In this document: positions 1,220-51,697 of the stretch, piece by piece
How positions within the stretch are numbered: the stretch's first letter is position 1
Layout of the letters: each line of letters begins with the position of its first letter
Assembly (NCBI RefSeq): GCF_027943255.1
Contig: NC_072897.1
Coordinates: forward strand, 38,848,044-38,912,043
DNA from: Anastrepha obliqua
Lineage: Eukaryota; Arthropoda; Insecta; Diptera; Tephritidae
Reading direction: 5' to 3'
DNA: 64,000 nt
Notes under the pieces: model-generated
The model's input: only the letters and a program-made list of their open reading frames with translations
Database searches by the model: none
Told to the model about the DNA's origin: nothing
Made by a program: the position numbers and the translations under genes

Positions 1220-1254
1220 GTGCGATTCACTAACACATTTTATCGATATTCGCT
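1220..1254 (+). repeat. Harbinger left terminal inverted repeat
   Basis: Positions 1220-1234 are the exact reverse complement of 4566-4580. Weaker similarity, including a shared TTATCGAT core, continues to about 1254. Confidence 0.85.
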
Positions 1255-1478: not shown

Positions 1479-2743
1479 ATGGCGTTTGAGTATTTGGCTT
1501 ACGATTTATCGCGTGGAGAGGAGGAAGTGAGCCCTCAAATAGTTGATCGAAGTTTGCTCCGGCATGTGGACAATCCTTTCGATTTGGATGCAGGGGAGTT
1601 CCAGAAGTTATTCCGTTTAACTCCAGACTTGACTGAGGACGTAGTTTCGCAGCTTGACAGCCATCTGAGAGGTTCCAGAGTAACAGCGATTTCGACTGAA
1701 AAACAGGTAAATTTGGTAACATTCAAGCTAATTCAGTTCTAAATTCTGCCTTTATACAACTAGGTTCTAGCTGCACTGCGATTTTTTGCAACCGGGTGTT
1801 ATCAACGACCCGTAGGTGAGCAATGGGGAATATCTATGAGCCAGTCGTCCGTTAGCCGTAGCATTCATCGGGTAACAGCTGCAATCAACAGCTCCATGTT
1901 TTGCGCAAAGGTGAGATTTCCCATGACCCAAGTGGAGCGGCAAGCGGCAAAAGAAATTTTTGCTTCAGCAACCTCCCCGTTTGTGGGAGGTACCATTGGA
2001 GCTATAGATTGCACGCACGTGTCAATTTTGGCCCCGAAACGTCATGAAGAAGCGTATGTCAACCACCACGGCTACCATTCGCTTAATGTCCAAATGGTAA
2101 CAACATAATTTGTAAAGTATTCAAGAATCAAGATTCCCTTTTAATGTTTTACAGATATGTGATCCTACACTTAAAATTTTGAACGTAAATGCCAAATTTC
2201 CGGGAGCACGGCACGATTCATACATTTGGAGTTCCTCTGCGGTGCGAATGGTTATGCAACGGAATTTTGAAATTGGAAACCATAACTTGTTTTTGATTGG
2301 TAGGCTTTTTAATCTATTAATAAATATATTTAAATAAAAATAAGGGAATTAAAAATCAAAAATTCTCTGCAGGTGATTCCGGGTACCCTTTGGAGCCTGG
2401 GCTGATGACTCCTCTAACAAACCAACCGGAAGGTACTCCGAAATTCTTGTACAATGAGGCATTGTGCAAAGCTCGTAACCCAGTTGAGAGACTTTTTGGT
2501 GTTCTTAAGGCAACGTGGCGGTGCTTGTCTCAACAAAGGACACTCTTGTACGATCCAGGATTTACTGGACAAGTAGTTAACGCGTGCTCAGTTTTACATA
2601 ATATTCGTTTAAGAGAAGGAATATACCAGACCGAAAATGAGTTCACAGAGCCCAGAACAAACGACGTTTTTGTAAACCAAGATGCACCATCCTCAACAGC
2701 AAAGCGCATCCAAGACCGACTGATTGCTAATTTTTTTACTTAA
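1479..2743 (+). CDS. HARBI1-like DDE transposase, 4 exons
   Basis: Predicted nuclease that cuts and joins Harbinger ends. I read four exons, 1479-1706, 1764-2096, 2155-2299 and 2373-2743. All introns are GT-AG and keep the frame, giving 358 residues, close to the roughly 350 of HARBI1-type proteins. An N-terminal helix-turn-helix-like part (SMSQSSVSRSIHRV, residues about 100-113) precedes the DDE_Tnp_4 catalytic domain. Visible acidic residues are D158 in GAIDCTHV, D237 in DSGYPLEPG and E274 in NPVERLFGVLK. The start is the ATG at 1479; an in-frame GTG six bases upstream is not a eukaryotic start. No stop or missing motif was found, so it may be functional. The partner gene at 3176-4242 converges on it. 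Splice sites are predicted by eye. Confidence 0.87.
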
Positions 2744-3175
2744 ATACTAATATATTTTCACTCATAATCATTCCGCATACATATCTATGTGAACACTCGG
2801 GTATAAAAAGTTAAAACATTTTTATATTTATTGTTAAAACGTTTTATTGAACAAAATTACATGCAGATTCAATAAAAAATAAATAAATAAAAATTCAGTC
2901 TTTAACTTCAGTTTACATACAGTTTTAGGTTACAGGCACATAAATCTATATATGTATATAGGTATGCATAAGCGTATGTACACATGGTTTATAAATTCAA
3001 AGGTCAGTCTATTTGTAAAAACGAAAACAATACATTCTAATTCATTTAATTAATGTTACTTAACATTACCACAGCATGTTTACTTATAAAATTCAAATAA
3101 AAAGAAACTTCAGGTACTAAAATAAACATTATGTATATATGCACATAAAAAGGAACTGCGGAATTGGTTTCTAAT

Positions 3176-4242
3176 CTACATACGGTAGATTGCATTCGTT
3201 AGATTGTTGAATGCTTCTACGGTAGCGCTTAATCCATTCCCCAATACGGCTATTGCCTCCGCCATCATTTTATTAGCCTGAGCAATTGCAGAGCTGCTTT
3301 CGGCTAAGATCTATTAAAAAATAGCAAGAACAATTAATAAAATGCCACTTTTATGTGTTGAAAATAAATTACCTTTAAAGCATCTGCTTGTTGTTTCGCG
3401 ACTTCTACTGTTTCTATACTCGACTGGGCTAGCATCTATTAAAAAACAATCAGCAATGGACAAACATAATAAAATTATTTTACATTAAGTTCAAAAGACA
3501 TTACCTTTAGTGCATCTGCCTGTTTTTCGGCTATCTCCAAAAATTTCTTCCGAGCATTACCGTCTTCTTCCATGCGCTTTCGTTTCAAGCTCGCCCGTGG
3601 TGTTCTCCTGTCTGAGATATGGGAATTACCTGACCTCAGCGTGAAATTCTCTGCCAGTGGCGTCCGTAAAGGCGACGGGGCTTCCAAAATCACCCTTTCA
3701 TCTTCCACTTCGACACCCATTTGGATTACCTAAAAATTTACACACCAGTAAGTTACACTTTAAAACATACACTTCATACAATTTACCTCCTCCAGTGGAA
3801 TATTTTCAGGGGTTGAATCGTGGCCCTTCATATACTCCTCCCCTATGAGAGCAGACACCCGCCTCTCGAATTCCGTTAGGGGCTCCTCACTGATAGGCCT
3901 GTTTCCCGTTAAAGCTTGTTGCCTTCGCCTATTCCGTGCTTTAATGCTGGTGCGGCTTTTTAAGTCCCGCCATACCTTTTTAGGGAAATTATTAACAACT
4001 CTCTACTTTTAAGTAATAACACAATATTTTCTTACCGTTTGCCATTGATTCACCGTCTTCACCGCTCCACCCAGACTATTTAATTTTGTTGCAAGCTCGC
4101 TCCACTTTTTATCGCACTCAAACTTACCATGGAGGCTGTGGAACCTAGATCCTGCTAGACCCGGGACTTCCATTAGGTAGTCAAGCAGGTGATTTAGCTG
4201 CTCGGATGTGGCACGGCTTCTTTTGGTAGCTGTCGATGTCAT
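3176..4242 (-). CDS. Harbinger Myb/SANT-like DNA-binding protein, 5 exons
   Basis: Second Harbinger gene. In this superfamily the Myb-like partner binds the transposon ends and helps bring the transposase to the nucleus and target. Minus-strand exons 4242-4036, 3975-3787, 3729-3505, 3435-3373 and 3310-3176 join in phase 0 to give 272 residues. The N-terminal half resembles the zeste/Myb_DNA-bind_5 type: SEQLNHLLDYLMEVPGLA, then a KKWSELATKLNSL helix and NQWQTVWRDLKSRTS across the first intron. A basic patch (RNRRRQQ) follows. The C-terminal exons encode repeated Ala- and Gln-rich helices (two copies close to KQQADALK) likely to form a coiled coil. The ATG at 4242 opens the frame. Function is inferred from family and context. 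Confidence 0.75.
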
Positions 4243-4490
4243 TCTAAAGCAATATACAAAAATTATTAATAAAACAATAAATTGAAATAAGCAGTTATTT
4301 TATTGTACTTACTTTGTACATATATTTTTGGTAAAAAACACTCACTGCATTTAATAGTTTGGCGTCTATGTTTTTTTGTTTCTCTTCTTCATGTTATTCG
4401 CTCATTCTGACATTTAATTTGACAAAGATGCCACTCTCTATCAGTTTGAATAAATAGAAGAAAACAGCTGTTCAGTGTTAGTTAACATAA

Positions 4491-4580
4491 GTTAGTGAAT
4501 AGCACAATCGACAGTGCAATCGACAAATACTGAAGAGAAAAATAACAATTTTCGAATCGATAAGAGTTAGTGAATCGCAC
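4491..4580 (-). repeat. Harbinger right terminal inverted repeat and subterminal copy
   Basis: The terminal 15 bp (4566-4580) mirror 1220-1234. A near copy of the same 15-mer (14 of 15) lies 75 bp inward at 4491-4505 in direct orientation. Such subterminal repeats are plausible binding sites for the transposase or Myb partner; that role is inferred. Confidence 0.75.
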
Positions 4581-5128
4581 TACAGGTTTAGGTACAAGTA
4601 CTATAGGCGATGCCCATTGCGAAAACCTGATTGGTTTCCAAATTCCGGCGTTTGTAAGTCTTTCTGCTTCTTTTTTGAACGCAGACATTTGCGAAAATGG
4701 CATTTTCCGGCTTTTGAAAAACTTAGGCGTTGCGTTTGCTTTTAACTGCACGGTAGCTTTGAAATTTTTTATTGTGCCAAGTGCTGGAGTAAACACCTCA
4801 CTATACTTCTCACAAAGCGCGTCCACTTGTTTCACTTCTTTCTGGGTGATTTTTGAAATTTGCTTTATTTCAAACCCAAATTGTTTGAACAAATCCACAC
4901 CAAAAAGATTGTCACCACTCTCAACGTTAGCTACCACAATATCGACTTGTTTTATTTTGCTACCACATTTCACAGTTGCACACAGTTCACCCAGCACTGG
5001 AATATGCTTTTCACCGAACCCGTATAAAATTCTTTTAGTTGCGCGAAGTTTTGGGCTATTTATTTGTTTATATGTATTTAAGTTCATCACCGAAATTGTA
5101 GCACCTGAATCCATTTGAAATTTTATAA
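4581..5128 (-). pseudogene. Gypsy-A protease and start of RT
   Basis: Middle part of the Gypsy-A gag-pol reading frame, between the mariner (right) and the Harbinger (left). It encodes an aspartic protease with catalytic DSGA in KFQMDSGATISVMN, followed by the hydrophobic FGVDLFKQFGFEI block. It then reads into the RT N-terminus, including FSQWASPIVLVPKP, where the Harbinger interrupts it. No internal stop is seen, so the two insertions are the only lesions in this segment. Its product would process the polyprotein and begin the RT fold. Confidence 0.9.
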
Positions 5129-5130
5129 TA

Positions 5131-5652
5131 GGTCTATGGATAAGTTCGTGCGGTTTTACAACAGATGGCGTAACTTGATTATTATTCCATCGATCCACAT
5201 TTCCAAACATTCATTGGAGAGCTACTGTCGTAAGGCACAAACGTCAGTATAAGTTTTTTATTTGAAGCGTAAACAACAATATTTTTACCACACTTGAAAA
5301 TGTCGAATTTCGTGCCAAATAATGTGTTTTTGCGGGGAATTCTTTAATATGAAGAAAAAAGCAGCCGAAAGTCATCGTATCTTGGTGGAAGTTTATGGTG
5401 AGCATGCTCTAGCTGAGCGAACGTGCCAGAAGTGGTTTGCACGCTTTAAAAGTGGTGATTTTGGCCGCGCCGCCAAAGTTCATGGATACCGAATTGGAGG
5501 AATTGCTCGATCAAGATCCGGCTCAAACGCAAGAAGAGGTTGCAAAAACTTTGGGAGTTGATCAATCAACCATTTCCAAACGTTTAAAAGCCATGGGAAT
5601 GATCCGAAATTCAAATTTCGAAAAAAAAACCGCACGAACTTATTCATAGACC
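5131..5652 (+). mobile_element. Mariner element, internally deleted
   Basis: A 522-bp Tc1/mariner-type insertion with inverted termini. The left end begins GGTCTATGGATAAGTTCGTG; the right end is its complement with one difference. It is flanked by TA on both sides (5129-5130 and 5653-5654), the family's target duplication. Full-length mariners are about 1.3 kb. This one keeps the 5' leader and roughly the first 100 transposase codons, then jumps to the right terminus. It lies near the gag-protease boundary of Gypsy-A, and outside it the gypsy frame is open on both sides. Confidence 0.9.
5300..5610 (+). pseudogene. Mariner transposase N-terminal fragment
   Basis: Remains of the DNA-binding half of a mariner transposase. 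An ATG at 5300 starts MSNFVPNN, but the frame soon stops. The next frame gives KKAAESHRILVEVYGEHAL followed by WFARFKSGDF (first helix-turn-helix). A further shift gives ELEELLDQDPAQTQ and QSTISKRLKAMGMI (second helix-turn-helix). The catalytic DDD domain is absent. At least two frameshifts plus the deletion leave no functional product, so the element could only move with help in trans. Confidence 0.88.
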
Positions 5653-5654
5653 TA

Positions 5655-6679
5655 TTAATTTTTCCGAAAATTTGCAAACTAATGTAGTTTTTATTATTTT
5701 CTGCTTCTACAACTCCTGTTACACTGTGCACTGTATCGATATTGTGAATATGTTGATTTGCTTTTTTGTTTTTATTTTTGTTCTCGTGGAAGTTTTTGCT
5801 TTGTTTACTCATACACACTTGCACTATATGGCCTTTTTTACCACATTTGTTACATATTGCGTTTCTGAATTTGCAGCTTTGTCGCGAATGAGAACTGCCA
5901 CAACCCGAGCAAGATTTAAATTTTGACAAATTCCCGGTAATGCAATTTGCGTTTGTTTTTTGAACATTCACAGCGTTAACTGGAATTTCTTTTTCACTCA
6001 CTTCTTCTTTGATTGCTTGTACTGTTTTTGTTGTTGCTTCAAACGACTCAGCTATGAGCATGACGTCGGCAAGGGTAGGTTGTAATTTTTGAAGCCAAGC
6101 GGAGCGGACAGCGTCGTGTGGTGTATGCGTGATGAGCTGGTCGCGGATCATCTCATCGATGTTTGTGTGAGAGCAGTTAATTGCGGAGCACACGAACTGA
6201 CACTCTCTTGCAAGACCACGAAGTTCGGCTACATACTCTCTGTAAGATTGGTGCGGCTTCATGTCCCGTTTAAAAAAATCGTAACGTGCTGCGATGATGT
6301 GTCGCCTTGACTGGAAATGTTCTGTTAACTTTTCCGTTAATTCTTTGAATGTTTGTTCTTGCAATTTAGTACTTCCAAAAAGATTTTTTAGAAGTTCAAA
6401 GACTTCTGCACCAATCCACGACAAGAAGAAGGATTTTTTCTTTTCCGCACAATTGACACCGTATGCACTGAAATGCTGGTTGAGTTGTTCCAAATATGAC
6501 TCCCATGTCTGCTGGTCTTTGGCAAACTTCGGGAATGAAGGCACTATGGTAGAAGTTGTACCATCTGCTTGCTTTTCAAGCAGCGCCTTCATCCACTTAT
6601 TTTGCTGTTCAAGCAAATTTTTCGCGAACTCTTTCTGTTCGCTTAAGAGTTTTTTTAAAACTTCACTGTCGTTCGACAT
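5655..6679 (-). pseudogene. Gypsy-A Gag, open up to the mariner insertion
   Basis: Structural protein of Gypsy-A. The ATG at 6679 begins MSNDSEVLKKLLSEQKEF, an N-terminal helical stretch. A capsid-like region follows (FPKFAKDQQTWESYLEQLNQ and RYDFFKRDMKPHQSYREYV). Two zinc knuckles come next: CSGCGSSHSRQSC with spacing C-x2-C-x3-H-x4-C, and CNKCGKKGHIVQVC with canonical C-x2-C-x4-H-x4-C. A Lys/Asn-rich stretch then leads into the frame that continued into protease before the mariner landed. The frame stays open into mariner DNA, so a hybrid tail would be read. Gag itself has no internal stop. Confidence 0.9.
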
Positions 6680-6711
6680 TACTCATACACAGTTTTTTCC
6701 TCGTCGCCAAT

Positions 6712-6924
6712 TGAAATAAATGAAACCGAATTGAAATAAGTGAGACCGAATTGAAAATAAGTGAGACCGACGCGCTTCCATCTAAAACTGCACTGCTTTA
6801 TTTAATCCTTTCATTTCTATACAGAGTTGCATAATTTGCCAGTGTTACCTAAGTAATAAGGTGTAAGCAGTGTTGCATAACAACTTACATATAAGTTATA
6901 TACATATAACTATAATTTATAACA
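6712..6924 (-). repeat. Gypsy-A 5' LTR (left copy)
   Basis: A 213-bp TG...CA repeat identical to 38817-39029 and 47096-47308. Read on minus it contains AATAAA and ends with about three imperfect 20-bp repeats of CGGTCTCACTTATTTCAATT. The minus-strand sequence next to it (TTGGCGACGAGG, ending at 6711) is where the primer-binding site should be; I could not name the tRNA. CATCC at 6925-6929 is the target duplication, shared with 38812-38816 in the other copy. Confidence 0.93.
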
Positions 6925-8175
6925 CATCCGATTGCCTGGTGAATAGAACTCCTCAGGGATTCTGTTATTTCGGGTAAGTTTTTGTCCCAGTGAGTATGAT
7001 CGTCTTTTAAATATGACCGTATACCTGCAATAATGGATTGATTGACTCGCTCGCTGGCATTTGCTTGTGGACTGTACAAGGCCGTGTAAATATGTCTAAT
7101 ACCACGTTCGGCAAGTAGATTGTTAAATTGGGAGGGTTTAAATTGTTTGCCGTTGTCACTTAGAATAATCTCCGGAGATCCAGATAATTGAAGTATTAAA
7201 ATTCCTAATAGCCTTCAATAAGGGAAATTTTGTGAGATCATCAAGGACAATCAAAATTCCTGTATTTCCTTGCCTAGATCTGGGATATGGACCAAGTAAA
7301 TCAATATATAACTTTTGAAACGGGCGTTGGACAGTATAGTGAACAGACATCGGTGGTCGTAAAGTAACATTCGGCGCTTTGCTTTGTTGACAAATGTCGC
7401 ATTGACCAACAAATTCTTTTACGTCCACAGTCATATTAAGCCAATAAAGGTTCAACCGTAATCGCTCTAAAGTTTTTGCAATGCCTCCATGACATTTATT
7501 TGGCGGGCAATGGGCATGTTCTATTGCTTGTCGAACTAACGTTTTTGGTATCCACAACTTCCAATTGAATTCTTCACGTGCTGGGTTTCCATCTGGATGT
7601 TCGGTTCGTTTGTAAACATGACCATCAATGATTTGAAGATCGGGTAAGCGGCTTTCATTATTTCGAATATTATTTATTAAATTTTTATATTCATCAGCTA
7701 AAAAATCGGACGAATTCAGATCAAAAAGCGGATGGACTTCTAACTCATTAATTTCCTCAAAATTCTGACGGGACAGACTGTCTGGCACAATATTTAGTGA
7801 ACCTTTTCGGTGTTCGATTTTAAACCTATATCCTTGTAGTTTAAGTGACCACCGAGCTAGTCTGCTCGATAAATCGGTTTGACGCATAAGCCATTGTAAA
7901 CTGGCGTGATCGGTTACGATAGTGAAGTCTTGCCCCTCCACATAAGCTCTAAACTCTTTTAAACTAAGGATAGCAGCAAGGCACTCTAGTTCGGTGACGC
8001 TGTAGTTACTTTGAGCCTTACTTAATTTCTGAGAAAAGTAAGCAATTGGTACCTCGACATCTTCGTCATTGTTTTGTGACAATACTGCACCAACACCGAG
8101 CTTACTGGCGTCACATTGAATTGTAAAGGGTTTCTCGTAATTTGGGCTGGCTAGAACTGGAGCAGAACATAGCAT
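6925..8175 (-). pseudogene. Gypsy-B RNase H and integrase, frameshifted and truncated
   Basis: From 8175 the frame encodes RNase H (FTIQCDASKLGVGAVLSQ, then YSVTELECLAAI and IVTDHASLQWLM) and the integrase zinc finger with the H-H-C-C arrangement ending GQCDICQQSK. It then reaches the first catalytic Asp in YIDLLGPYP. Compared with internal region 2, about 35 bp are missing near 7184, between two short CA matches. This shifts the frame before the second catalytic Asp; the rest (YSPQANASERVN and on) continues in another frame to Gypsy-A. The 5' end is also out of frame with RT, see the next entry. Non-functional. Confidence 0.9.
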
Positions 8176-9881
8176 TCCTCATTCCAAGAAAAATTTTTAC
8201 CTTTCTTTAATAAATTGGTTAATGGGCTTGTTATCGCGGCAAAGTTGTCAATAAAACGGCGGTACCAACCTGCCATTCCTAAGAAACGTCGTAATAGTTT
8301 TACATTCGTCGGTACGGGGTAGTTTGTTACAGCTGAAATTTTATCAGGATCAGTTTTGAGTGTTCCATCTCCAACGATATATCCAAGATATTTTACCTCT
8401 TTTATACAAAATTTACTTTTTTCTATATTTATTGTTAAACCAGCTTTCCTTAAGTGATAAGCAACTTCGGATAAAACGGACATGTGTATGTTGAAATCTA
8501 CTGACACAATTAAAAGATCATCTAAATATACAAAAACTTGGTTTTTTAATTGAGGAGGGATAACGCGATCCATTAGGCGACAGAGTGCTTGAGGGGCGTT
8601 ACATAAACCAAAAGGCATGGCACAGTATCGGTAAAGCGGACGATTAGGAACGGTAAAACAGGTGAAGTCTCGAGAACTATCCGAGAGAGGTATCTGCCAA
8701 AAAGCACGACGCAGATCCAATGAACTTATGTATTTTGCTTTCGGTATCCTACTTAATATTCCATCAATGTGAGTTAGAGGATATGCGTCCTTGATAGTAA
8801 CGCTATACACTTTTCGTGAATCAAGGCACAGACGGACTTTATTTGGCTTTTTCACTAAAACAATCGGACTAGACCATGGACTATTCGGAGATTCTTCAAT
8901 TACACCTAATTTGAGCATCTCGTCGATTTCAGCGTGAACAAGTTTTTCTACTGCAGGGGATATTGGGAAGTATCGTTGTTTTATCGGACGGACACCAGGT
9001 TGAAGTTCAATTACATATTCCATTAAAGAAGTTTTTCCTAATCCTTCTTTCTCGAAGCTTGGAAATCTATTTTTAACAACGTCTAGCTGTCGTTGCTGTT
9101 CATTACTTAAACAAAGTGTATTTTCCTCACGTCTTGTTTCAAGACAAATTTCCGAGATAACATGTGGAGCAATTTTAAATTTACTCCAAAAGTCGACTCC
9201 AAGTATAACTTCTTGTGAAACGCTCGGTACAACAAAAAATTTTATTATATGGTTCTTGTTTTCAAATACAACATTTAAGTCTACCGTACCAAAAACTACT
9301 TGTTCCTTTCCATCTGCAGTACAGACAGACGTTGTGTGCTTGCATATATGTTTTCGTTTGCAAATGTCTTCCGCTAAAGATGAACCTAAACAAGAGACTT
9401 GAGCTCCGCTATCTAAAAGTCCTAAATACTCGGAATCCAGAATTTTAATTTTGGCATAAGGCCTTAAGTCGCAAGATTCGTGTTTAATGGAACAAACAAG
9501 ATGATTCACGATTTTACGATTCTTTTTAATTGTTTTCCAAAACTTTCTTAAGCGTACTGAAGATCGGCTACTAGTTGGTGACGGTTTATTGTTGGTATCA
9601 AAAATTTGTTTTCTAATCTTGTAGTAATTATTAAGTCGAACGTCATAGGGAATAATTGTATGCACATACGGATTACTTTTATCGAATTTGTGGGCACGTA
9701 TGAGTGACGTTGCGTAGTCATCGTTTTGGGACTTGCCCCTTCGTATGAGCACTTTCTTCACATTTGATTCTTCTTGTCGTTGCGAGGGTTCTGTGTTGAA
9801 GCCTCGCTCATTTTCAAGTTTCCCGGACTGCACGATGGGCATTTTGGTCGATAAACTTCTGGCATTCCACAACCATAGCAA
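8151..9881 (-). CDS. Gypsy-B protease and reverse transcriptase ORF
   Basis: The pol ORF lies in the -1 frame relative to Gag and overlaps its end, as in elements that make Gag-Pol by -1 frameshifting. The protease has catalytic DSGA in LGLLDSGAQVSCLG and the later ILGVDFW. RT motifs are WSSPIVLVKKPNKVRLCLD, YISSLDLRRAFWQIPL, MPFGLCNAPQALCRLMD and catalytic YLDDLLIV, followed by the thumb block FLGMAGWYRRFIDNF. The ORF stops just after FSWNEECY. RNase H resumes in another frame 25 bp earlier. By comparison with related elements a few codons appear deleted there, and the same lesion occurs in all three copies. RT itself looks intact. Confidence 0.9.
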   Translation of the reverse strand: MLWLWNARSLSTKMPIVQSGKLENERGFNTEPSQRQEESNVKKVLIRRGKSQNDDYATSLIRAHKFDKSNPYVHTIIPYDVRLNNYYKIRKQIFDTNNKPSPTSSRSSVRLRKFWKTIKKNRKIVNHLVCSIKHESCDLRPYAKIKILDSEYLGLLDSGAQVSCLGSSLAEDICKRKHICKHTTSVCTADGKEQVVFGTVDLNVVFENKNHIIKFFVVPSVSQEVILGVDFWSKFKIAPHVISEICLETRREENTLCLSNEQQRQLDVVKNRFPSFEKEGLGKTSLMEYVIELQPGVRPIKQRYFPISPAVEKLVHAEIDEMLKLGVIEESPNSPWSSPIVLVKKPNKVRLCLDSRKVYSVTIKDAYPLTHIDGILSRIPKAKYISSLDLRRAFWQIPLSDSSRDFTCFTVPNRPLYRYCAMPFGLCNAPQALCRLMDRVIPPQLKNQVFVYLDDLLIVSVDFNIHMSVLSEVAYHLRKAGLTINIEKSKFCIKEVKYLGYIVGDGTLKTDPDKISAVTNYPVPTNVKLLRRFLGMAGWYRRFIDNFAAITSPLTNLLKKGKNFSWNEECYVLLQF

Positions 9882-9937
9882 AAGACAGTTCTGTCAGCCA
9901 GACAGTCAAAATATCTGTGTCCTTCGGTTTTGCAGTT

Positions 9938-10606
9938 CTAGCAAATTAATTTAGAATGACTAGGATACTTTGTAATCTCATCGATTTCGCACTCTAGTTG
10001 TTCTCGAACAGCGTCTTCGACTGTTAGTTCATTGGCAAAGCGACGTAAGTATTGTCGCTGATTTAAAACTGGTAATGAATTGGTAGATCGATTGATTTCA
10101 TTTGCCAGGCTTTCACCTTTCAGACAAAGCCTGCGCAATTCTGCTATGGAATTTATTTGCACATCTAACAATTGTTGTCGCACCCGAGGTCTTAAATTAT
10201 GTTGCAAAATTTCTACCAGTTCGATTTCGGGCAAAGGGGATTGTAATGATTCAGCAATTTTAAGAACTGCATTTCTAAAATCATCAAAACTTTCGATAGC
10301 CCCTTGTTTTCTATTGCGGACTAGTTCTTTAATTTCAAAATCGCTTCTGTGTTGTTGAAAATTGGTACGCAATGCTTGGCAAAGTGAAGGCCAGGTGACA
10401 CGTTCAACTGAGCGACGATATCTCCAATACCAATCCTTTGCTTCATTGATAAATAGACTTTGCACATGCTCACACAGTAAATTAAAATTTCCCCCTAACG
10501 TGTCGATCACTTGACACTCAATGCGGTATAAAAAGCTATCTACTGCTAACTTTGATGAGCCGTCAAATTTTATATCCCAGTTGGATATTAATTGGGCTAT
10601 TCTATA
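9938..10606 (-). pseudogene. Gypsy-B Gag capsid region
   Basis: Gag lies in the -1 frame relative to the RING ORF and overlaps it by 10 nt. It opens with an ISNWDIKFDG stretch typical of this gypsy Gag group. A helical capsid follows (LCEHVQSLFINEAKDWYWRY, RVTWPSLCQALRTNF, SFDDFRNAVLKIAE, RVRQQLLDVQINSIAELR). The frame ends at a TAG inside the first zinc knuckle (the codon after IC). The downstream residues CKTEGHRYFDC and CYGCGTP lie beyond the stop. No ATG fits well at the start, which supports read-in from the RING ORF before a 1-nt change. Internal region 2 lacks this stop but has a different lesion. Confidence 0.85.
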
Positions 10607-11313
10607 TTACCTGAGTTGGGAACATTAGACATGTCACTGAATCGTAAATTATCAATATTCCTGTGAAAATTTTGGTTAGAATTGTTTGCTAAATTCGGAA
10701 TATCTCTAGGCCAAAAAGGAGTTGAGTTATCCTGATGTGTATTCGGTTGGTGAACGTTCACATTTGGACTGATGTTAGCTGCAGGTTGAGATGATTGACC
10801 ATTTAGATTTAATCGACCTAATATGTTTGCCACGGTATTTTCGAGGTTCTCTTCAATTAGCTGTGAAACACGATTTTCCAAATCGTTGAAAAGAGTTGCC
10901 TGTCGCGCTGATATCACGGCGGTTACAATATTCCGTACTCGGTTATCTTCCTCATTGGAGCTGGTATTGCCATCTTGTGTATTGGGAACAGGTAAGCTTG
11001 CTGCACCATCAGAGCGATGTTCTTCATTACGTTCCGCAGAAGGCAATTCTAAGTCTCTAATAGGATTGTCTGATCGAAAAGCTCTAGCCCTAGTACGCGC
11101 ACCAGTATTTTGTGAAAAATCTCTGCTATTATATTTGGCATGGCACTGTGGACAAGACGTGTTTCTTTTAAGCCAGGTTAAAAGACATGATCGGTGGAAA
11201 CGATGGGAACAAACTGTCATTAAAATATCATCGCGTTCTGAAAAGCTGACTTTGCATATTGTGCACACATTAGCCTGTGGTGGCAAATGCTCATTACTAT
11301 GACGCAAGAACAT
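10597..11313 (-). CDS. Gypsy-B RING-H2 finger ORF upstream of Gag
   Basis: 238 codons from ATG at 11313. Residues 17-57 form a complete RING-H2 zinc finger: Cys17, Cys20, Cys35, His37, His40, Cys43, Cys54, Cys57, with spacing C-x2-C-x14-C-x-H-x2-H-x2-C-x10-C-x2-C. The hydrophobic residue after Cys17 (Ile19), Trp47 and Pro55 match positions that contact E2 enzymes in known RING ligases, so ubiquitin-ligase activity is plausible. Residues about 75-125 are polar and disordered-looking. Residues 125-165 could form a helix or coiled coil (RQATLFNDLENRVSQLIEEN). The tail is Asn/Pro rich. It stops 10 nt into the Gag frame, so the ancestral protein was probably a RING-Gag fusion. All three window copies have the same stop. 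Role and origin are inferred. Confidence 0.85.
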   Translation of the reverse strand: MFLRHSNEHLPPQANVCTICKVSFSERDDILMTVCSHRFHRSCLLTWLKRNTSCPQCHAKYNSRDFSQNTGARTRARAFRSDNPIRDLELPSAERNEEHRSDGAASLPVPNTQDGNTSSNEEDNRVRNIVTAVISARQATLFNDLENRVSQLIEENLENTVANILGRLNLNGQSSQPAANISPNVNVHQPNTHQDNSTPFWPRDIPNLANNSNQNFHRNIDNLRFSDMSNVPNSGNIE

Positions 11314-11801
11314 TTTGAGAAAAAAAAAATGTAATATATTGACGACAAAAAAAAAATAGTACTAATTCCAAAATTTCCAAAAAAAAAAATTCGATTCAAT
11401 TTAATTACGCAGTCTCGTATAGAAACTAAACAAATAAAAATTTAAAAAGAATATACGGGATAAGTGGTACACACTCAATCAAATTTGATGATACCCTGTA
11501 TTGAAAAAAAAAGAAATTTACTAAACTATAAATCCAAAAATATTATGATAAATCCAAAGACGATTATTTAAAAAAAAAACAAAAATCAAAACTATTCTTG
11601 AAAAGCTATAAATAAGTAGGTTGCAAAAAAAAATCCTGTATCAACTTGCTTTAATCAAAAGCAAAAAAAAAATCAAGTATTTATATATGAAAAATAACTG
11701 AAATGGTCTAATTCATCGGTCGTGTGATGATCTGGTTGGCTTAAGAGATCCTAGGCTAGAGTAAAGTAGGTAGTCAGTATGTTGGCAAAAAAAAACACAA
11801 A
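11314..11801 (-). other. Gypsy-B untranslated leader, part
   Basis: AT-rich sequence with several A8-A9 runs between the RING ORF and the Helitron. It is the 5' leader on the minus strand; it continues after the Helitron only in the right copy (54654-55229). No gene seen. Confidence 0.8.
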
Positions 11802-12147
11802 TCTATACTAATATTATAAAGAGGAAAACTTTGTTTGTTTGTTTGTAACGAATAGGCTCAAAAACTACTGGACCGATTTTAAAAATTCTTTCACCATTCG
11901 AAAACTACATTATCCAGGAGTAACATGGATTACATTTTATTTTGGAAAAAATAGGGTTCCGTAAGATATTTGGATTTTTCGGACACAAACTGAAAAAAAT
12001 CTTATATATAAGATAAAGTCAACTTTTTGTGTGTGTTCGCTAACCGGCCGTGTCTGCACCGAATTAAACCAAACTTACACACATAGTTAAGAAGGTATTG
12101 AAGATGGTTTCCGTATAGTTTGGATACCTATTGGTGGATAGGGCTCG

Positions 12148-13530
12148 AGATATAGGTCAAAACGTGGACCCGGGTAACCTTCGGATGTGTATGTACAATA
12201 TGGGTATCAAATGGAAGCTGTTGGTGAATGCTTTAGTTCAGAGTATTTTTCATGCCGCTCCGTGACTAGGGTCTCGAGATAGAGACCAAAACGTGGACCC
12301 TAGAATGTGTATGTACAATATGGGTATCAAATGGAAGCTGTTGGTGAATGCTTTAGTACAGAGTATTTTTCATGCCGCTCCGTGACTGGGGTCTCGAGAT
12401 ATAGGTCAAAACGTGGACCCGGGTAACCTTTGGATGTGTATGTACAATATGGGTACCAAATGGAAGCTGTTGGGGAATGCTTTAGTTCAGAGTATTTCCA
12501 TCCGCTCCGTGACTAGGGTCTCGAGATAGAGACCAAAACGTGGACCCTAGAATGTGTTTGTACAATACGGATATCAAATGAAAGCTGTTGATAAGTGCTT
12601 TAATACGGGGTAATTTTCATACCTATTGATGACTGGGATCTGGAGATATATGCCAAAACGTGGACCCGCCGTGTCTTTGCACCGAATTAAACCAAACTTA
12701 CACACATTGTTAAGGAGGTATTGAAGATGGTTTCCGTATAGTTTGGATACCTATTGGTAGAAAGGGTCTCGAGATATAGGTCAAAACGTGGACCCGGGTA
12801 ACCTTTGGATGTGTATGTACAATATGGGTATCAAATGGAAGCTGTTGGTGAATGCTTTAGTTCAGAGTATTTCCATCCGCTCCGTGACTAGGGTCTCGAG
12901 ATAGAGACCAAATCGTGGACCCTAGAATGTATTTGTACAATATGGGTATCAAATGAATGCTGTTGATAAGTGCTTTAATACGGGGTAATTTTCATACCTA
13001 TTGATGACTAGGGTCTCGAGATATAGGTCAAAACGTGGACCCGGCTAACCTTCGGACGTGTATGTACAATATAGGTATCAAATGAAAGCTGTTGATAAGT
13101 GCTTTAATACGGGGTAATTTTCATACCTATTGATGACTAGGGTCTCGAGATATAGGTCAAAACGTGGACCCGGGTAACCTTAGGACGTGTATGTACAATA
13201 TGGGTATCAAATGGAAGCTGTTGGTAAATGCTTTAGTTCAGAGTATTTTTCATGCCGCTCCGTGACTAGGATCTCGAGATAGAGACCAAAACGTGGAGCC
13301 TAGAATGTGTTTGTACAATATGGATATCAAATTGAAGCTGTTGGTGAATGCCTTAGTACAGAGTATTTTTCATGCCGCTACGTGACTGGGGTCTCGAGAT
13401 ATAGGTCAAAACGTGGACCCGGGTAACCTTTGGTTGTGTATGTACAATATAGGTATCAAATGAAAGCTGTTGATAAGTGCTTTAATACGGGGTAATTTTC
13501 ATACCTATTGATGACTAGGGTCTCGAAATA
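12148..13530 (+). repeat. Helitron minisatellite, alternating 120- and 128-bp units
   Basis: Units begin near GTCTCGAGATA. Observed starts 12271, 12391, 12518, 12638, 12765, 12893, 13013 and 13142 give spacings of about 120 and 127-129 bp in alternation. The longer unit carries CCCGGGTAACCTT, the shorter one CCCTAGAATG, so the true period is a dimer of about 248 bp. A longer block containing CCGTGTCTTTGCACCGAATT recurs near 12665 and 13550. Confidence 0.85.
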
Positions 13531-13599
13531 TATGCCAAAACGTGGACCCGCCGTGTCTTTGCACCGAATTAAACCAAACTTATGCACATTGTTAAGTAA

Positions 13600-13810
13600 G
13601 TATTGAAAATGGGTTTCGTAAAGTTTGGTTGTAATTCGGAGCAGTGGCAACGGGTACAGCGTTCTTTTGAGCCAGCCATAATGTCGCTTACTTTTTTAAC
13701 GCTTGGGGCGGAACTGAACTGTCAAATTGACAGTGTTAGTTACAATGTGTCAATATTTCTTTCTGATTTGGATGCCATATGGAAAAAACGTAAGTGCAAC
13801 ATGTAAAAAT
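13600..13810 (+). other. Conserved Helitron 3' segment resembling a captured 5' exon
   Basis: Single-copy sequence after the minisatellite, kept in every Helitron of the window. It reads openly from an ATG at 13609, has a near-palindrome ACTGTCAAATTGACAGT, and ends at AAACGTAAGT, a good splice donor. It could be a captured promoter and first exon of a host gene, but chance cannot be excluded. The reverse-strand 64-codon ORF here is not supported. Confidence 0.35.
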
Positions 13811-14309
13811 TGTTTGTGAATTTTTTTGGAGTGGATTTTGGAACAGTGAATAATTTCTTACGAAATTTGAGAATTTAATGTGAAATCCGAATGAAATTAT
13901 GTGTTCGTGGAAAAAACAATTTTTTTCGTTTTTTTTTTTTTTAAATATAAATGGATAATGGTTAAAAAAGCTCCAATGCTTAATAAAACATATAAATTGA
14001 AACGAAAAATTCATGGATGATCAGGAAAAAAGACGATTGTTTATTCATATGCGTTGATTTGAAATTTAAAAACAATCTTCTTTTTTCTTGATTTTCAATT
14101 TATATTTTATATTTACTCAAAAACAAATAGAAAAACAAAAAATAGCGTTTATGCCAAAGCGCTTGAATAAAGAATAAAGAAATAAATAATATGAAAACCA
14201 TATATTTTCTGTTCTAAACCATATCTATTCTATTTTAGTGTGCCCAGCGAAGGGGGCCGGTTTTGCTAGTATTATATATGGAGAGATAACAATAAATTAA
14301 TTTACTTAC

Positions 14310-14479: not shown

Positions 14480-15990
14480 TCAACCCGACTTAGACTCCGA
14501 TTCTAGTTTGCCCTCTAATAGTTTTTCACCTCTCAATTTTGGGACTTTGTGCCTATCTGTTACTGATGTCGTCAAGGGTATTATGAAGCTCAAGTCTACA
14601 ACGAAAACTGACTCGGATGGCCTCTCGGGCATTTTGCTGAAGAACTGCTTGTGTCTCGCTGAGCCTCTTACAATTATATTTAATAAATCGTTGTCCTCTG
14701 GTATCTTTGTTGACGACTGGAAATTTACTTCCGTTACGCCTATATTTAAGAGTGGAAATAAAAACGATGTTAGCAATTACAGACCGATTTGGAAGCTTTC
14801 GTCTATCTCAAAACTTTTTGAGATAACAGTGAATGATAAGTTATATTTTGCTGTCAAAGGCCTAATATCTACTAACCAGCATGGTTTCGTTGCAAGTCGC
14901 TCCACTGTCACTAATTTGTCTATTTTCAATGATGCATTTCAGCCTTCCAGAACAGATCTCAAGTTGATGCAATTTATACAGACTTCTCTAAAGCGTTTGA
15001 CAAAGTATCCCACCGAATACTCTTGTCGAAGCTTGCATCATTGGGTATACGTTTTTGTCGTGGATCAAATCATATTTGTCCAACAGGCACTGCGTTGTAG
15101 CCGTTGATAATACGACATCCCGACATCCCGACTCTGAAAAGTTGCAAACCGACTTGCACAATGTCCGGAACTGGTGCTATTTAAACCGTTTGTCACTAAA
15201 TATTAGCAAATGCTTTCACGTAAAATATGCTAAATCAAACAATACTTTACATACTTCGTATAGTATTGCTGGCTTACCTTTGCAATCCGTTGAGGAAATT
15301 AAAGACTTAGGCGTTATTTTCGACTCTAAACTGAATTTCACCAGCCATGTTAACCACGTCATAAGACGATCATATGCGATGCTAGCATTCGTACGCCGAA
15401 ATTATTCTGCATTTACCAACCCACACACTCTCAAAACATTGTATTGTGCTTTTGTTAGATCAAGATTAGAGTATGCCGCTATTATTTGGAGACCGTACCA
15501 AATAGGTCTGTCTAATCGGATTGAGAGAGTTCAGAAAGTATTTCTTCGTTTTGCGCTCCGATCTTTAAACTTTTCTGAACCTGTACCATCGTACCGCTCT
15601 CGATGTTTATTGATTGACTTAAAACCACTTGATAGCAGACGATCTATCGTGCTCTTTTATTATTCGTATCATTTCTGGATCTATTGATTGTCCTTCCCTT
15701 TTAAGTAAAATTCAATTTAATATACCCAATATGAGGCTCCGACAGTACGAAACCTTTAAAATTGGCTTCTCGAGAACCAACTGTTGGGTGAATGCTCCGA
15801 TTCCTAGGGCATGTGCAGATTTAAATATGTTTTTCAATTCTTCTGGTGCTGATTTTACATGGCATCTTAGTCAATCATCTTAAATCGTTCTTTTCTTAGC
15901 AACTGCTAAACTATTGTACATTAGCTTAATATAGTCTGTAAGAATGTATCCATTCAAAGACAATAAATAAATAAATAAAATAAATAAAAA
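14480..15990 (+). pseudogene. Jockey/CR1-like LINE reverse transcriptase, decayed
   Basis: 5'-truncated non-LTR retrotransposon. Early RT blocks are readable: TDSDGLSGILLKNC, DDWKFTSVTPIFKSGNK, SNYRPI and NQHGFVASRSTVTNL. Frameshifts follow before TDFSKAFDKVSH and WIKSYLSNRHCVVAVD. The stretch that should carry the catalytic [YF]ADD is missing: sequence jumps at a duplicated GACATCCC near 15117-15130 to LQTDLHNVRNWCYLNRLSLN. The C-terminal thumb and tail run to a stop at 15881. The element ends in (TAAA)n at about 15963-15990, typical of a simple-repeat LINE tail. The clade call is from motif style only. Inactive. Confidence 0.8.
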
Positions 15991-25371: not shown

Positions 25372-26095
25372 AAGACAGTTCTGTCAGCCAGACAGTCAAA
25401 ATATCTGTGTCCTTCGGTTTTCCAGTTCCAGCAAATTAATTTAGAATGACTAGGATACTTTGTAATCTCATCGATTTCGCATTCTAGTTGTTCTCGAACA
25501 GCGTCTTCGACTGTTAGTTCATTGGCAAAGCGACGTGAGTATTGTCGCTGATTCAAAACTGGTAATGAATTGGTAGATCGATTGATTTCATTTGCCAGGC
25601 TTTCACCTTTCAGACAAAGCCTGCGCAATTCTGCTATGGAATTTATTTGCACATCTAACAATTGTTGTCGCACCCGAGGTCTTAAATTATGTTGCAAAAT
25701 TTCTACCAGTTCGATTTCGGGCAAAGGGGATTGTAATGGTTCAGCAATTTTAAGAACTGCATTTCTAAAATCATCAAAACTTTCGATAGCCCCTTGTTTT
25801 CTATTGCGGACTAGTTCTTTAATTTCAAAATCGCTTCTGTGTTGTTGAAAATTGGTACGCAATGCTTGGCAAAGTGAAGGCCAGGTGACACGTTCAACTG
25901 AGCGACGATATCTCCAATACCCATCCTTTGTTTCATTGATAAATAGACTTTGCACATGCTCACACAGTAAATTACAATTTCCCCCAACGTGTCGATCACT
26001 TGACACTCAATGCGGTATAAAAAGCTATCTACTGCTAACTTTGATGAGCCGTCAAATTTTATATCCCAGTTGGATATTAATTGGGCTATTCTATA
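25248..26095 (-). pseudogene. Gypsy-B Gag, internal region 2
   Basis: Capsid and nucleocapsid in one frame. The TAG found in the zinc knuckle of the other copies is absent here, and the frame reads CWNWKTEGHRYFDC and then CYGCGTPEVYRPKC. The first knuckle has Trp where the second Cys should be; the other copies keep that Cys but have a stop next to it. A 1-nt deletion near 25985 shifts the frame close to the N-terminus, so the upstream 26095-25988 part is in another frame. Gag is broken differently in the two internal regions. Confidence 0.85.
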
Positions 26096-26802
26096 TTACC
26101 TGAGTTGGGAACATTAGACATGTCACTGAATCGTAAATTATCAATATTCCTGTGAAAATTTTGGTTAGAATTGTTTGCTAAATTCGGAATATCTCTAGGC
26201 CAAAGAGGAGTTGAGTTATCCTGATGTGTATTCGGTTGGTGAACGTTCACATTTGGACTGATGTTAGCTGCAGGTTGAGATGGTTGACCATTTAGATTTA
26301 ATCGACCTAATATGTTTGCCACGGTATTTTCGAGGTTCTCTTCAATTAGCTGTGAAACACGATTTTCCAAATCGTTGAAAAGAGTTGCCTGTCGCGCTGA
26401 TATCACGGCGGTTACAATATTCCGTACTCGGTTATCTTCCTCATTGGAGCTGATATTGCCATCTTTTGTATTGGGAACAGGTAAGCTTGCTGCACCATCA
26501 GAGCGATGTTCTTCATTACGTTCCGCAGAAGGCAATTCTAAGTCTCTAATAGGATTGTCTGATCGAAAAGCTCTAGCCCTAGTACGCGCACCAGTATTTT
26601 GTGAAAAATCTCTGCTATTATATTTGGCATGGCACTGTGGACAAGACGTGTTTCTTTTAAGCCAGGTTAAAAGACATGATCGGTGGAAACGATGGGAACA
26701 AACTGTCATTAAAATATCATCGCGTTCTGAAAAGCTGACTTTGCATATTGTGCACACATTAGCCTGTGGTGGCAAATGCTCATTACTATGACGCAAGAAC
26801 AT
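26086..26802 (-). CDS. RING-H2 finger ORF, internal region 2
   Basis: Same 238-codon ORF as 10597-11313. All eight zinc ligands and Trp47 and Pro55 are conserved. The few substitutions (Lys for Gln and Ile for Thr in the PNTKDGNISS stretch, Pro for Ser near NGQPSQP, Leu for Phe in STPLWPRD) all lie outside the RING. The ORF ends at the same stop, in the same -1 relation to Gag. Confidence 0.85.
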   Translation of the reverse strand: MFLRHSNEHLPPQANVCTICKVSFSERDDILMTVCSHRFHRSCLLTWLKRNTSCPQCHAKYNSRDFSQNTGARTRARAFRSDNPIRDLELPSAERNEEHRSDGAASLPVPNTKDGNISSNEEDNRVRNIVTAVISARQATLFNDLENRVSQLIEENLENTVANILGRLNLNGQPSQPAANISPNVNVHQPNTHQDNSTPLWPRDIPNLANNSNQNFHRNIDNLRFSDMSNVPNSGNIE

Positions 26803-27877
26803 TTTGAGAAAAAAAAAATGTAATATATTGACGACAAAAAAAAAATAGTACTAATTCCAAAATTTCCAAAAAAAAAAATTCGATTCAATTTAATTACGCA
26901 GTCTCGTATAGAAACTAAACAAATAAAAATTTAAAAAGAATATACGGGATAAGTGGTACACACTCAATCAAATTTGGTGATACCCTGTATTGAAAAAAAA
27001 AGAAATTTACTAAACTATAAATCCAAAAATATTATGATAAATCCAAAGACGATTATTTAAAAAAAAAAACAAAAATCAAAAGTATTCTTGAAAAGCTATA
27101 AATAAGTAGGTTGCAAAAAAAAAATCCTGTATCAACTTGCTTTAATCAAAAGCAAAAAAAAAAAAAATCAAGTATTTATATATGAAAAATAATTGAAATG
27201 GTCTAATTCATCGGTCGTGTGATGATCTGGTTGGCTTAAGAGATCCTAGGCTAGAGTAAAGTAGGTAGTCAGTATGTTGGCAAAAAAAAAGACAAATCGG
27301 TTATAATCTTATCAATCGAAAATTATAAGGTTCCGATTTTTTGTTTGTTTTTAATTTAGAATAACTAATTATCAAAAGAGAGAATATAAAATTGTTATGA
27401 GAAAAAAAATGTAATCAAGACTTTTGTAATTAATATATGTAAATTGACAAAGCTACTGGTAAGCAAGCTGGCATGTAGCCATTAAATTCCAAGTAGTCTA
27501 TAACTAAAAAAAAACAAAAGCCTGAAAATGGTTAATTAAATTATTTACGTCGTTGTTGTTATACAATATCCTCAGCGGTCAATTTCTTAGACATAAAGCC
27601 TGTCGAAAATTGCAATTCCAGCGTTGAAATTTCTGCAGAACAAAACTATAAAACCAAAATATTAAATTTGTAACTTGTCATAGTCTAAGCATTTAGCTAT
27701 ACACTATGAATTCAAAAGTTTACATATTATTTTTATTAATTTCAAAAGCAAATCAGAAAGACAAAAAAAAATTATTCCAAGTACGAATAGTGTTTTGGAG
27801 ACCACAAATAGTGTTGAGCAGTTGGCAGCTACAAATAGCCGCAGTCTTGTGGGCCCCACGTTGGGCGCCATTTTATC
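26803..27877 (-). other. Gypsy-B leader, uninterrupted
   Basis: About 1.07 kb between the 5' LTR and the RING ORF, AT-rich with A-runs. It contains the primer site at its LTR end and the empty Helitron site at 27296/27297. The + strand ORF crossing the primer site is not supported. Confidence 0.8.
27853..27870 (-). promoter_or_regulatory. Gypsy-B primer-binding site, tRNA-Lys type
   Basis: Minus-strand TGGCGCCCAACGTGGGGC, 7 nt from the end of the LTR. It is complementary to the 3' end expected of insect tRNA-Lys, including CCA pairing. The tRNA identity rests on recall of the lysine primer sequence. Confidence 0.8.
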
Positions 27878-29031
27878 TGTTATGTGACCATAGGTGATTT
27901 CTAGTAGGCTTGCTTGTGGTGATGGTCTGTCACTGCGCCGTGTGCACTCGCTTGTGTCCCGGAGCTTCAGTATGTTGGTTCGGAAACGCAGCAGCAGAGC
28001 CAAGCTACCATCATAACTATCGCCACACTAGATAAACTAAATAAATTGCACACGGAGAAAATTAGAAACTGCCAACATACGTAACTTCCACATACAGTCC
28101 TAAAAGGCCTAGGAATCCTTAAGCCTGGCAGCGCATGTGTATGTCGTGTGGCTGCTCTATACCCACCCTACCTTGGCTTTGTAGATGTAAATAAAGCCCC
28201 ATTAGATCATCTACACTTCCTCCGAAATCAGACCAAAATTATGAAAAAATCTAGTAAATCATTTTCATTACAATATTTATTAACAAATTATCAAAAATAT
28301 CAAAAATAAGTATATTATATTTTAAACAATGGCGTACTAACATTATTTTGTGGGTGTACATTAACTTACTAAAACTGCCCTACCTCAACATTTTCTTTAA
28401 TATATGTATGTGGTCATTAACCCGAAAAAAAAATATATTAAATAATATTCAAAGTATGTATATAAGGAAACAAAAGGAACGAAATGGAATAACCGAAAAT
28501 ATCAAAGTAAGTATACGTACGTATGGATGTACATTATTCTTTATAAATAAGTTCTCTCAAACAAAAAAAAACTGTTATTGCAAATTGCTGCATACTATAC
28601 TTCCATACATACGTCTACATGAATTTAAATGAGCGGGAGAGTGAATATTAACATAAAATAAGGAATATAAAGAATTAGCAGTTGCACTTACATATTGGTG
28701 TCGACATAGCAGTCCAACGATGCGTAGAAGGCCTCCTCTCTGTGTGGTTGTTGCTAGATTTTGTGTGCTTTAATTTATATTAGGAGGATGGTTCCATGTG
28801 TAGAAGTCCACGCAAGTGGGGAAAGTTACTGATCGCCATTCACTTGGGAGTGGCCAGGACGATTCTTCTACATATGGTTCAAGTAGCTCACAACGTCCGG
28901 GATTAGCCCACGTATCCTCTGGTTAGCTTCCGAACACCCGTCCGGGAGTGAGCTAAAGTGAGAAGGCGAAGCATCCCAGCATAGCTGGTTGTGCGCTAGA
29001 TTTGGCATCCACCACTTAAAAATCCCCCCCA

Positions 29032-45512: not shown

Positions 45513-45514
45513 TA

Positions 45515-46036: not shown

Positions 46037-46038
46037 TA

Positions 46039-50321: not shown

Positions 50322-50990
50322 CTAGCAAATTAATTTAGAATGACTAGGATACTTTGTAATCTCATCGATTTCGCACTCTAGTTGTTCTCGAACAGCGTCT
50401 TCGACTGTTAGTTCATTGGCAAAGCGACGTAAGTATTGTCGCTGATTTAAAACTGGTAATGAATTGGTAGATCGATTGATTTCATTTGCCAGGCTTTCAC
50501 CTTTCAGACAAAGCCTGCGCAATTCTGCTATGGAATTTATTTGCACATCTAACAATTGTTGTCGCACCCGAGGTCTTAAATTATGTTGCAAAATTTCTAC
50601 CAGTTCGATTTCGGGCAAAGGGGATTGTAATGATTCAGCAATTTTAAGAACTGCATTTCTAAAATCATCAAAACTTTCGATAGCCCCTTGTTTTCTATTG
50701 CGGACTAGTTCTTTAATTTCAAAATCGCTTCTGTGTTGTTGAAAATTGGTACGCAATGCTTGGCAAAGTGAAGGCCAGGTGACACGTTCAACTGAGCGAC
50801 GATATCTCCAATACCAATCCTTTGCTTCATTGATAAATAGACTTTGCACATGCTCACACAGTAAATTAAAATTTCCCCCTAACGTGTCGATCACTTGACA
50901 CTCAATGCGGTATAAAAAGCTATCTACTGCTAACTTTGATGAGCCGTCAAATTTTATATCCCAGTTGGATATTAATTGGGCTATTCTATA
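50322..50990 (-). pseudogene. Gypsy-B Gag, internal region 3
   Basis: As 9938-10606: the capsid is open and a TAG lies in the first zinc knuckle. Confidence 0.85.
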
Positions 50991-51697
50991 TTACCTGAGT
51001 TGGGAACATTAGACATGTCACTGAATCGTAAATTATCAATATTCCTGTGAAAATTTTGGTTAGAATTGTTTGCTAAATTCGGAATATCTCTAGGCCAAAA
51101 AGGAGTTGAGTTATCCTGATGTGTATTCGGTTGGTGAACGTTCACATTTGGACTGATGTTAGCTGCAGGTTGAGATGATTGACCATTTAGATTTAATCGA
51201 CCTAATATGTTTGCCACGGTATTTTCGAGGTTCTCTTCAATTAGCTGTGAAACACGATTTTCCAAATCGTTGAAAAGAGTTGCCTGTCGCGCTGATATCA
51301 CGGCGGTTACAATATTCCGTACTCGGTTATCTTCCTCATTGGAGCTGGTATTGCCATCTTGTGTATTGGGAACAGGTAAGCTTGCTGCACCATCAGAGCG
51401 ATGTTCTTCATTACGTTCCGCAGAAGGCAATTCTAAGTCTCTAATAGGATTGTCTGATCGAAAAGCTCTAGCCCTAGTACGCGCACCAGTATTTTGTGAA
51501 AAATCTCTGCTATTATATTTGGCATGGCACTGTGGACAAGACGTGTTTCTTTTAAGCCAGGTTAAAAGACATGATCGGTGGAAACGATGGGAACAAACTG
51601 TCATTAAAATATCATCGCGTTCTGAAAAGCTGACTTTGCATATTGTGCACACATTAGCCTGTGGTGGCAAATGCTCATTACTATGACGCAAGAACAT
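50981..51697 (-). CDS. RING-H2 finger ORF, internal region 3
   Basis: Same translation as 10597-11313, with all eight zinc ligands present. It overlaps the Gag frame by 10 nt in -1. Confidence 0.85.
   Translation of the reverse strand: MFLRHSNEHLPPQANVCTICKVSFSERDDILMTVCSHRFHRSCLLTWLKRNTSCPQCHAKYNSRDFSQNTGARTRARAFRSDNPIRDLELPSAERNEEHRSDGAASLPVPNTQDGNTSSNEEDNRVRNIVTAVISARQATLFNDLENRVSQLIEENLENTVANILGRLNLNGQSSQPAANISPNVNVHQPNTHQDNSTPFWPRDIPNLANNSNQNFHRNIDNLRFSDMSNVPNSGNIE

What the first reader, a model, noticed from the sequence alone, without database searches (positions are those of the whole stretch)
10597..11313. RING-H2 finger joined to the Gag of a Ty3/gypsy retrotransposon
The ORF directly upstream of Gypsy-B Gag holds a complete RING-H2 finger (ligands at 17, 20, 35, 37, 40, 43, 54, 57) with E2-contact-like Ile19, Trp47 and Pro55, then a polar linker. 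Gag follows in the -1 frame with a 10-nt overlap and no convincing ATG, so the ancestor was probably a RING-Gag polyprotein. Substitutions between the two diverged internal regions spare the RING. I do not recall a RING at the Gag N-terminus as a described gypsy feature. A ligase on the particle could act in Gag turnover, budding or degradation of host defence proteins; that is inference.
Basis: partly seen in the sequence, partly recalled or inferred. Interest (0 to 1): 0.87.

Follow-up and report, generated by a model that had tools for sequence, protein, structure and literature searches.

The report
RING finger fused to retrotransposon Gag
A jumping gene in this genome (likely a fly's) encodes its particle protein, Gag, with a RING finger at the front, a fold predicted to tag proteins with ubiquitin; many related elements carry the same kind of fusion, which a 2013 paper already mentions for a blowfly element, but its function seems untested.

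Summary
The 238-residue ORF carries a RING-H2 finger (Pfam E 4.7e-11). It is not a separate gene but the front of a Ty3/gypsy Gag cut off by a frame break shared by all three window copies. Elsewhere in the same genome an unbroken copy reads RING, linker, capsid and zinc knuckles in one ORF of 509 aa. RING-Gags are widespread: of 52 database hits 38 carry the RING, 8 begin after it, 2 distant ones lack it, 4 are unrelated RING proteins. In a 35-row alignment all eight zinc ligands are invariant; the linker has no invariant column. AlphaFold predicts a RING that superposes on E2-bound RNF165 and an Arc/PEG10-type capsid. The E2-contact Trp is kept in 18 of 35 rows, so ligase activity is likely for one subclade and doubtful for the rest. 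The novelty claim fails in part: a 2013 paper reports a RING finger in the Gag of Osvaldo and of a blowfly element (PMC3630058). Added here: breadth, conservation, and the split at the E2-contact residue. Function remains inferred.

The parts
10597..11313 (-). ORF of 238 aa, copy 1: RING-H2 finger plus linker; N-terminal part of a frame-broken Gag
11140..11268 (-). RING-H2 finger, residues 16-58
   Evidence: Pfam; AlphaFold pLDDT about 95 in the same region of an unbroken copy
10822..10959 (-). Region matching a predicted long helix in the linker, residues 119-164
   Evidence: AlphaFold of the unbroken copy in L010, pLDDT about 82-88
9761..10594 (-). Rest of Gag in another frame: capsid domain and zinc-knuckle region, with a further stop (the ORF ends at 9938)
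   Evidence: Retrotrans_gag and Ty3_capsid weak hits; ORF end; DNA alignment to the L010 Gag ORF runs to 9761
8151..9881 (-). Pol part: aspartic protease and reverse transcriptase
   Evidence: RVT_1 1.8e-30, gag-asp_proteas 2.1e-06
7156..8175 (-). Pol part: RNase H and integrase zinc-binding region; the frame breaks downstream
   Evidence: RT_RNaseH 1.3e-39, Integrase_H2C2 1e-16
26086..26802 (-). Copy 2 of the RING-linker ORF, 98% identical, same frame break
50981..51697 (-). Copy 3 of the RING-linker ORF, 100% identical to copy 1, same frame break
27878..28784 (-). Part of the 5' LTR of copy 2; LTR ends in CACATAACA at 27878
27853..27870 (-). Primer-binding-site-like sequence TGGCGCCCAACGTGGGGC, 7 bases inside the LTR (match to tRNA-Lys is recalled, not tested)

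Best explanation
The window ORF is the front part of a Ty3/gypsy Gag whose unbroken copies in the same genome read RING finger, linker, capsid and zinc knuckles in one frame, and this RING is predicted to work as a ubiquitin ligase carried on the Gag particle. Shown: the fusion, its presence in many related proteins, and strong conservation of the zinc-binding residues. Predicted: the RING fold, a long linker helix and an Arc/PEG10-type capsid. Inferred: Gag molecules assemble through the capsid, so the RINGs would be clustered at the N-terminal (matrix) position of the particle; there they would recruit a host UbcH5-type E2 and ubiquitylate either neighbouring Gag (turnover, release or trafficking) or host proteins that touch the particle. 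The window copies themselves look dead: the frame is broken between RING-linker and capsid, and they likely multiplied by segmental duplication.
For: Single-frame RING-Gag ORFs in this genome: 509 aa in L010 and 520 aa in L006, whose last residues follow a deletion. Of 52 database hits 38 bear the RING. In the 35 aligned rows 10 of 43 RING columns are invariant, against 0 of 172 linker columns and 15 of 168 capsid columns. Mean column identity: RING 0.56, capsid 0.63, knuckles 0.66, linker stretches about 0.3-0.4. Between the L010 copy and window copy 1 the RING has 0 changes, the linker 16 nonsynonymous and 1 synonymous, the capsid 5 and 10 (RING against linker, nonsynonymous, one-sided p = 0.019). 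The model's RING superposes on E2-bound RNF165 (TM 0.90 by target, 0.7 A over 46 columns, rank 27, E 0.010) and its capsid on dArc and PEG10. Trp47 is kept throughout one 17-member subclade of a capsid-only tree (support 0.81), 14 of the 17 with Arg58.
Against: No biochemistry and no expression data. Trp47 is missing in 17 of 35 rows, replaced by H, S, Y, F, C, V or A; this family has His, not Arg, at position 58, the usual linchpin place (role of both residues recalled). Within-genome counts are small: against L010 other copies do differ in the RING (L011 by 1 nonsynonymous, L012 by 2 and 1 synonymous, L015 by 2), all private; over 14 copies RING changes are 0 shared and 5N:2S private; RING against all other Gag gives only p = 0.028. 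A low-lysine linker, which would fit a ligase, is equally low in RING-less relatives. A shared fold shows no function.
Confidence: 0.58

Rival explanations
1. The RING is a structural zinc module of Gag: a matrix-like piece for self-association or partner binding, without ligase activity, at least outside the Trp47 subclade.
For: All eight zinc ligands are invariant in 35 of 35 rows while the E2-contact Trp is kept in 18 of 35 and position 58 varies among R, K, H, Q, N and G. The divergent member P0037, without the Trp, is still predicted with a confident RING fold.
Against: Position 19 stays I, V or L and Pro55 is invariant; Trp47 is kept in the whole subclade that holds this element, mostly with Arg58. 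Some active RINGs lack a Trp at this place (recalled). The P0037 RING also superposes on E2-bound RNF165.
Confidence: 0.32
2. A host RING gene landed by chance next to Gag at this one locus.
For: The window alone shows two ORFs in different frames.
Against: 44 matching stretches on contigs 1, 4, 5, 6 and 9 (some are pieces of one copy, and the last three, at 22-40% identity, are probably other RING genes), unbroken one-frame copies, and 38 RING-bearing relatives in the database.
Confidence: 0.01
3. The -1 overlap is a programmed frameshift, so the RING-linker is also made as a separate protein.
For: The overlap recurs in the three window copies.
Against: These copies look like segmental duplicates (window 1-14270 and 40385-54654 are 99.99% identical), so they likely count once; unbroken copies and the aligned relatives read straight through.
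Confidence: 0.02

Closest known systems
Cv_Isis-like of Calliphora vicina and Osvaldo of Drosophila buzzatii (Osvaldo lineage of Ty3/gypsy; PMC3630058, passages seen)
   Same: Gag of 531 aa with a RING finger domain in Cv_Isis-like; RING said to be present in Osvaldo; second ORF is pol; Cv_Isis-like lacks env
Isis of Drosophila buzzatii (as told in PMC3630058)
   Same: Osvaldo lineage; Gag 40% identical to that of Cv_Isis-like
   Different: Said to lack the RING and to have env
RNF165/RNF38/RNF126-type RING-H2 ligases
   Same: RING-H2 sequence and predicted fold, E2-contact Ile and Trp
   Different: Host ligases, not Gags; their usual Arg at the place of His58 is recalled
dArc1/dArc2 and PEG10 capsid domains
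   Same: Predicted capsid fold
   Different: Domesticated host genes without a RING (recalled)
TRIM5-type restriction factors and arenavirus Z protein (recalled)
   Same: RING linked to capsid binding, or RING in a matrix protein
   Different: No homology tested here; a working analogy only

Membership tests
RING-H2 finger domain | C3H2C3 ligand pattern with curated-model score above cut-off | tested here: met
   zf-RING_2 43.2 bits against cut-off 27.3
RING E3 ubiquitin ligase | E2-dependent ubiquitin transfer | not testable with these tools
   needs biochemistry
RING E3 ubiquitin ligase | E2-contact residues (I19, W47, P55 and linchpin R/K58; roles recalled) | tested here: inconclusive
   I, W and P present, His at 58 in this family; W in 18 of 35 rows
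Ty3/gypsy LTR retrotransposon | Gag, then pol in the order PR-RT-RNaseH-IN | tested here: met
   Pfam hits in this order in the window; integrase zinc-binding domain and, below its cut-off (3.9e-06, partial), integrase core in L010
Ty3/gypsy LTR retrotransposon | LTRs and primer binding site | tested here: met
   LTR L009:553-1820 with TG...CA ends, PBS-like sequence 7 bases inside; tRNA match not tested
Osvaldo lineage of Ty3/gypsy | Placement with Osvaldo/Ulysses/Isis in a pol tree | not testable with these tools
   no Osvaldo, Ulysses or Isis sequence was at hand
Osvaldo lineage of Ty3/gypsy | RING in Gag, as reported for Osvaldo and Cv_Isis-like (not a strict marker: Isis is said to lack it) | tested here: met
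   PMC3630058
Osvaldo lineage of Ty3/gypsy | PBS to tRNA-Lys (recalled) | tested here: inconclusive
   PBS-like sequence seen; the search for the tRNA gene did not complete
Insect endogenous retrovirus (errantivirus) | env ORF after pol | tested here: not met
   in L010 no ORF of 80 aa or more on the + strand was listed between the end of pol (8932) and the next LTR (about 9667); one copy only

The most novel reading that the evidence does not exclude
Ty3/gypsy elements of a large, old clade carry their own ubiquitin ligase on the particle, in the place where retroviruses have matrix: a weapon or a self-timer built into Gag. One subclade kept the full E2-docking surface, while the others kept the zinc fold but changed the docking residue, perhaps to use other E2s.
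Probability: 0.4. Interest if true: 0.78.

Novelty: new member of a known kind. Interest (0 to 1): 0.5.

Why it matters
A ubiquitin ligase fused to the capsid protein of a retrotransposon would mean that the element, and not only its host, brings ubiquitin into the contest over particles, the mirror image of TRIM5-type restriction (recalled). The feature was noted in one sentence in 2013 (PMC3630058), and the listings and passages seen from the ten paper searches made here showed no follow-up; the family alignment and the Trp47 split give a direct set of proteins to test.

Full report
WHAT IS THERE. Pfam zf-RING_2 scores 43.2 bits against a cut-off of 27.3, E 4.7e-11, and the best solved-sequence matches are the RINGs of RNF126, RNF38 and RNF24. 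Downstream on the same strand lie the capsid part of a Gag (Retrotrans_gag and Ty3_capsid, both weak), then protease, reverse transcriptase, RNase H and an integrase zinc-binding region.

THE FRAME. It holds three copies of the ORF (starts at 11313, 26802 and 51697), all ending after the same residues. Copies 1 and 3 lie in stretches that are 99.99% identical over 14,270 bases, so the cluster most simply grew by segmental duplication and the shared frame break is one event. Copy 1 has a further stop in its Gag remainder, whose ORF ends at 9938. Elsewhere in the genome, on contig 6 near 12.73-12.75 Mb, RING, linker, capsid and two zinc knuckles are read in one unbroken ORF (509 aa in L010; 520 aa in L006, where the last residues follow a deletion of about 220 bases relative to other copies). 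At L005 the frame also runs from the RING into the capsid before a later break. So the overlap is damage, and the ancestral protein is RING-Gag. I name no change that would mend it.

THE ELEMENT. Comparison of copies puts the LTR at L009 553-1820 (1268 bp, TGATTAACAG...CACATAACA), followed by 7 bases and a primer-binding-site-like sequence, TGGCGCCCAACGTGGGGC in window copy 2 and slightly different in L009. That this pairs with tRNA-Lys is recalled; the search for the tRNA gene did not complete. The array at 12.67-12.80 Mb holds units of about 5.6 kb that stop inside the integrase, and one longer spacing of 7843 bases. In L010 no ORF of 80 aa or more was listed on the + strand between the end of pol and the next LTR, so no env was seen there; other copies were not checked for env.

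RELATIVES. A search with the 520-aa protein gave 46 proteins, and one with the 35-row alignment gave 52. Of the 52, 38 bear the RING; 8 (P0009, P0023, P0024, P0025, P0034, P0044, P0045, P0051) begin after the place of the RING, so they cannot tell; P0048 and P0050 are distant and have long N-terminal parts without a RING (Pfam); P0053-P0056 are unrelated RING proteins that match over 9% of the query. Named hits are Rhagoletis pomonella (P0009) and Lucilia cuprina (P0023) in these searches and Ceratitis capitata (P0002, which keeps only the end of the finger); most others come from unnamed assemblies. Pfam on the 47-row set A2 finds zf-RING_2 in 39 and Retrotrans_gag in 42 at E up to 0.01. The host of this window was not identified; a fly is likely from these names only.

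CONSERVATION. For the alignment I gave 34 of the 46 proteins plus L006; the 12 left out were short pieces, RING-less, or half-length. Because rows were chosen as full-length RING-Gags, the 35 of 35 for the ligands is conditional on that choice; the point is that identity to L006 goes down to 28% while every ligand, Phe39 and Pro55 stay. Ten of 43 RING columns are invariant, 0 of 172 in the linker, 15 of 168 in the capsid. Within the genome, the L010 copy and window copy 1 differ at no RING codon (14-60), at 16 nonsynonymous and 1 synonymous places in the linker, and at 5 and 10 in the capsid; three other copies do differ from L010 in the RING (L011 1 nonsynonymous; L012 2 and 1 synonymous; L015 2). 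Among 14 young copies, changes shared by more than one copy are 0 in the RING, 21N:3S in the linker, 10N:13S in the capsid and 2N:4S in residues 401-490; changes private to one copy are 5N:2S, 26N:6S, 20N:13S and 21N:10S. This fits constraint on the RING while the element moved and free decay afterwards, but numbers are small (p = 0.019 one-sided, 0.028 and 0.038).

HOW IT LIKELY WORKS. The N-terminal place of the RING is that of matrix in retroviral Gag (recalled). Assembly through the capsid would cluster many RINGs, which usually favours ligase activity (recalled). I infer a particle-borne ligase acting on Gag itself or on host proteins that meet the particle. For it: the E2-contact Ile, Trp and Pro are present, and Trp47 marks a whole subclade of 17 (support 0.81) in a tree built from the capsid-to-knuckle part alone; one further Trp row, P0031, lies outside at a poorly supported place (0.25). 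Of the 18 Trp rows 14 have Arg58. Against it: 17 of 35 rows have another residue at 47, and this family has His at 58. The rival, a structural zinc module, stays open.

LITERATURE. Ten searches were made in the held PMC library. [quoted passage not shown] PMC12910113 (passages) lists a RING domain in a figure legend on Drosophila virilis elements, without saying in the passages seen which element. PMC3391268 (passages) places Woot of Tribolium in the Osvaldo lineage. PMC4411706 (passages) discusses RING fingers fused to transposases of the Transib/Chapaev line and to RAG1, whose RING has ligase activity. PMC12992720, PMC5408442 and PMC7334843 (passages) say nothing of a RING in Gag in what I saw. 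No listing or passage that I saw tests a Gag-borne RING for activity; most papers of subscription journals are not held.

VERDICT. A real, conserved RING-Gag fusion, a new member of a kind already noted in print. 

Noticed in passing
window 1-14270 and 40385-54654: Part of a higher-order duplication with a period of 40,384 bases, 99.99% identical (one mismatch over 14,270 bases); the RING copies inside likely multiplied with it.
   Followed up: partly
window 12048-13662 and 18417-20030: Satellite-like repeats with 129- and about 249-base spacing near the element, in the stretch where the 5' part of copy 1 is interrupted.
   Followed up: no
window 14508-15687 (+): Two ORFs that look like pieces of a non-LTR reverse transcriptase (by eye).
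   Followed up: no
G000 contig 6, 12.67-12.80 Mb (L009, L010, L013, L016-L025): Tandem array of RING-Gag elements, with units of about 5.6 kb truncated in the integrase, plus one longer 7843-base spacing.
   Followed up: partly
L046 and L047: Distant RING-less Gag ORFs begin with a stretch that resembles a SAP domain (recalled, no family search), another possible added head on a Gag.
   Followed up: no
PMC3630058 supplementary legend: A Pao element (Pao_Cv1) is also marked with a RING finger, so RING may have been gained more than once by LTR elements, or the label may be a zinc-binding look-alike.
   Followed up: no
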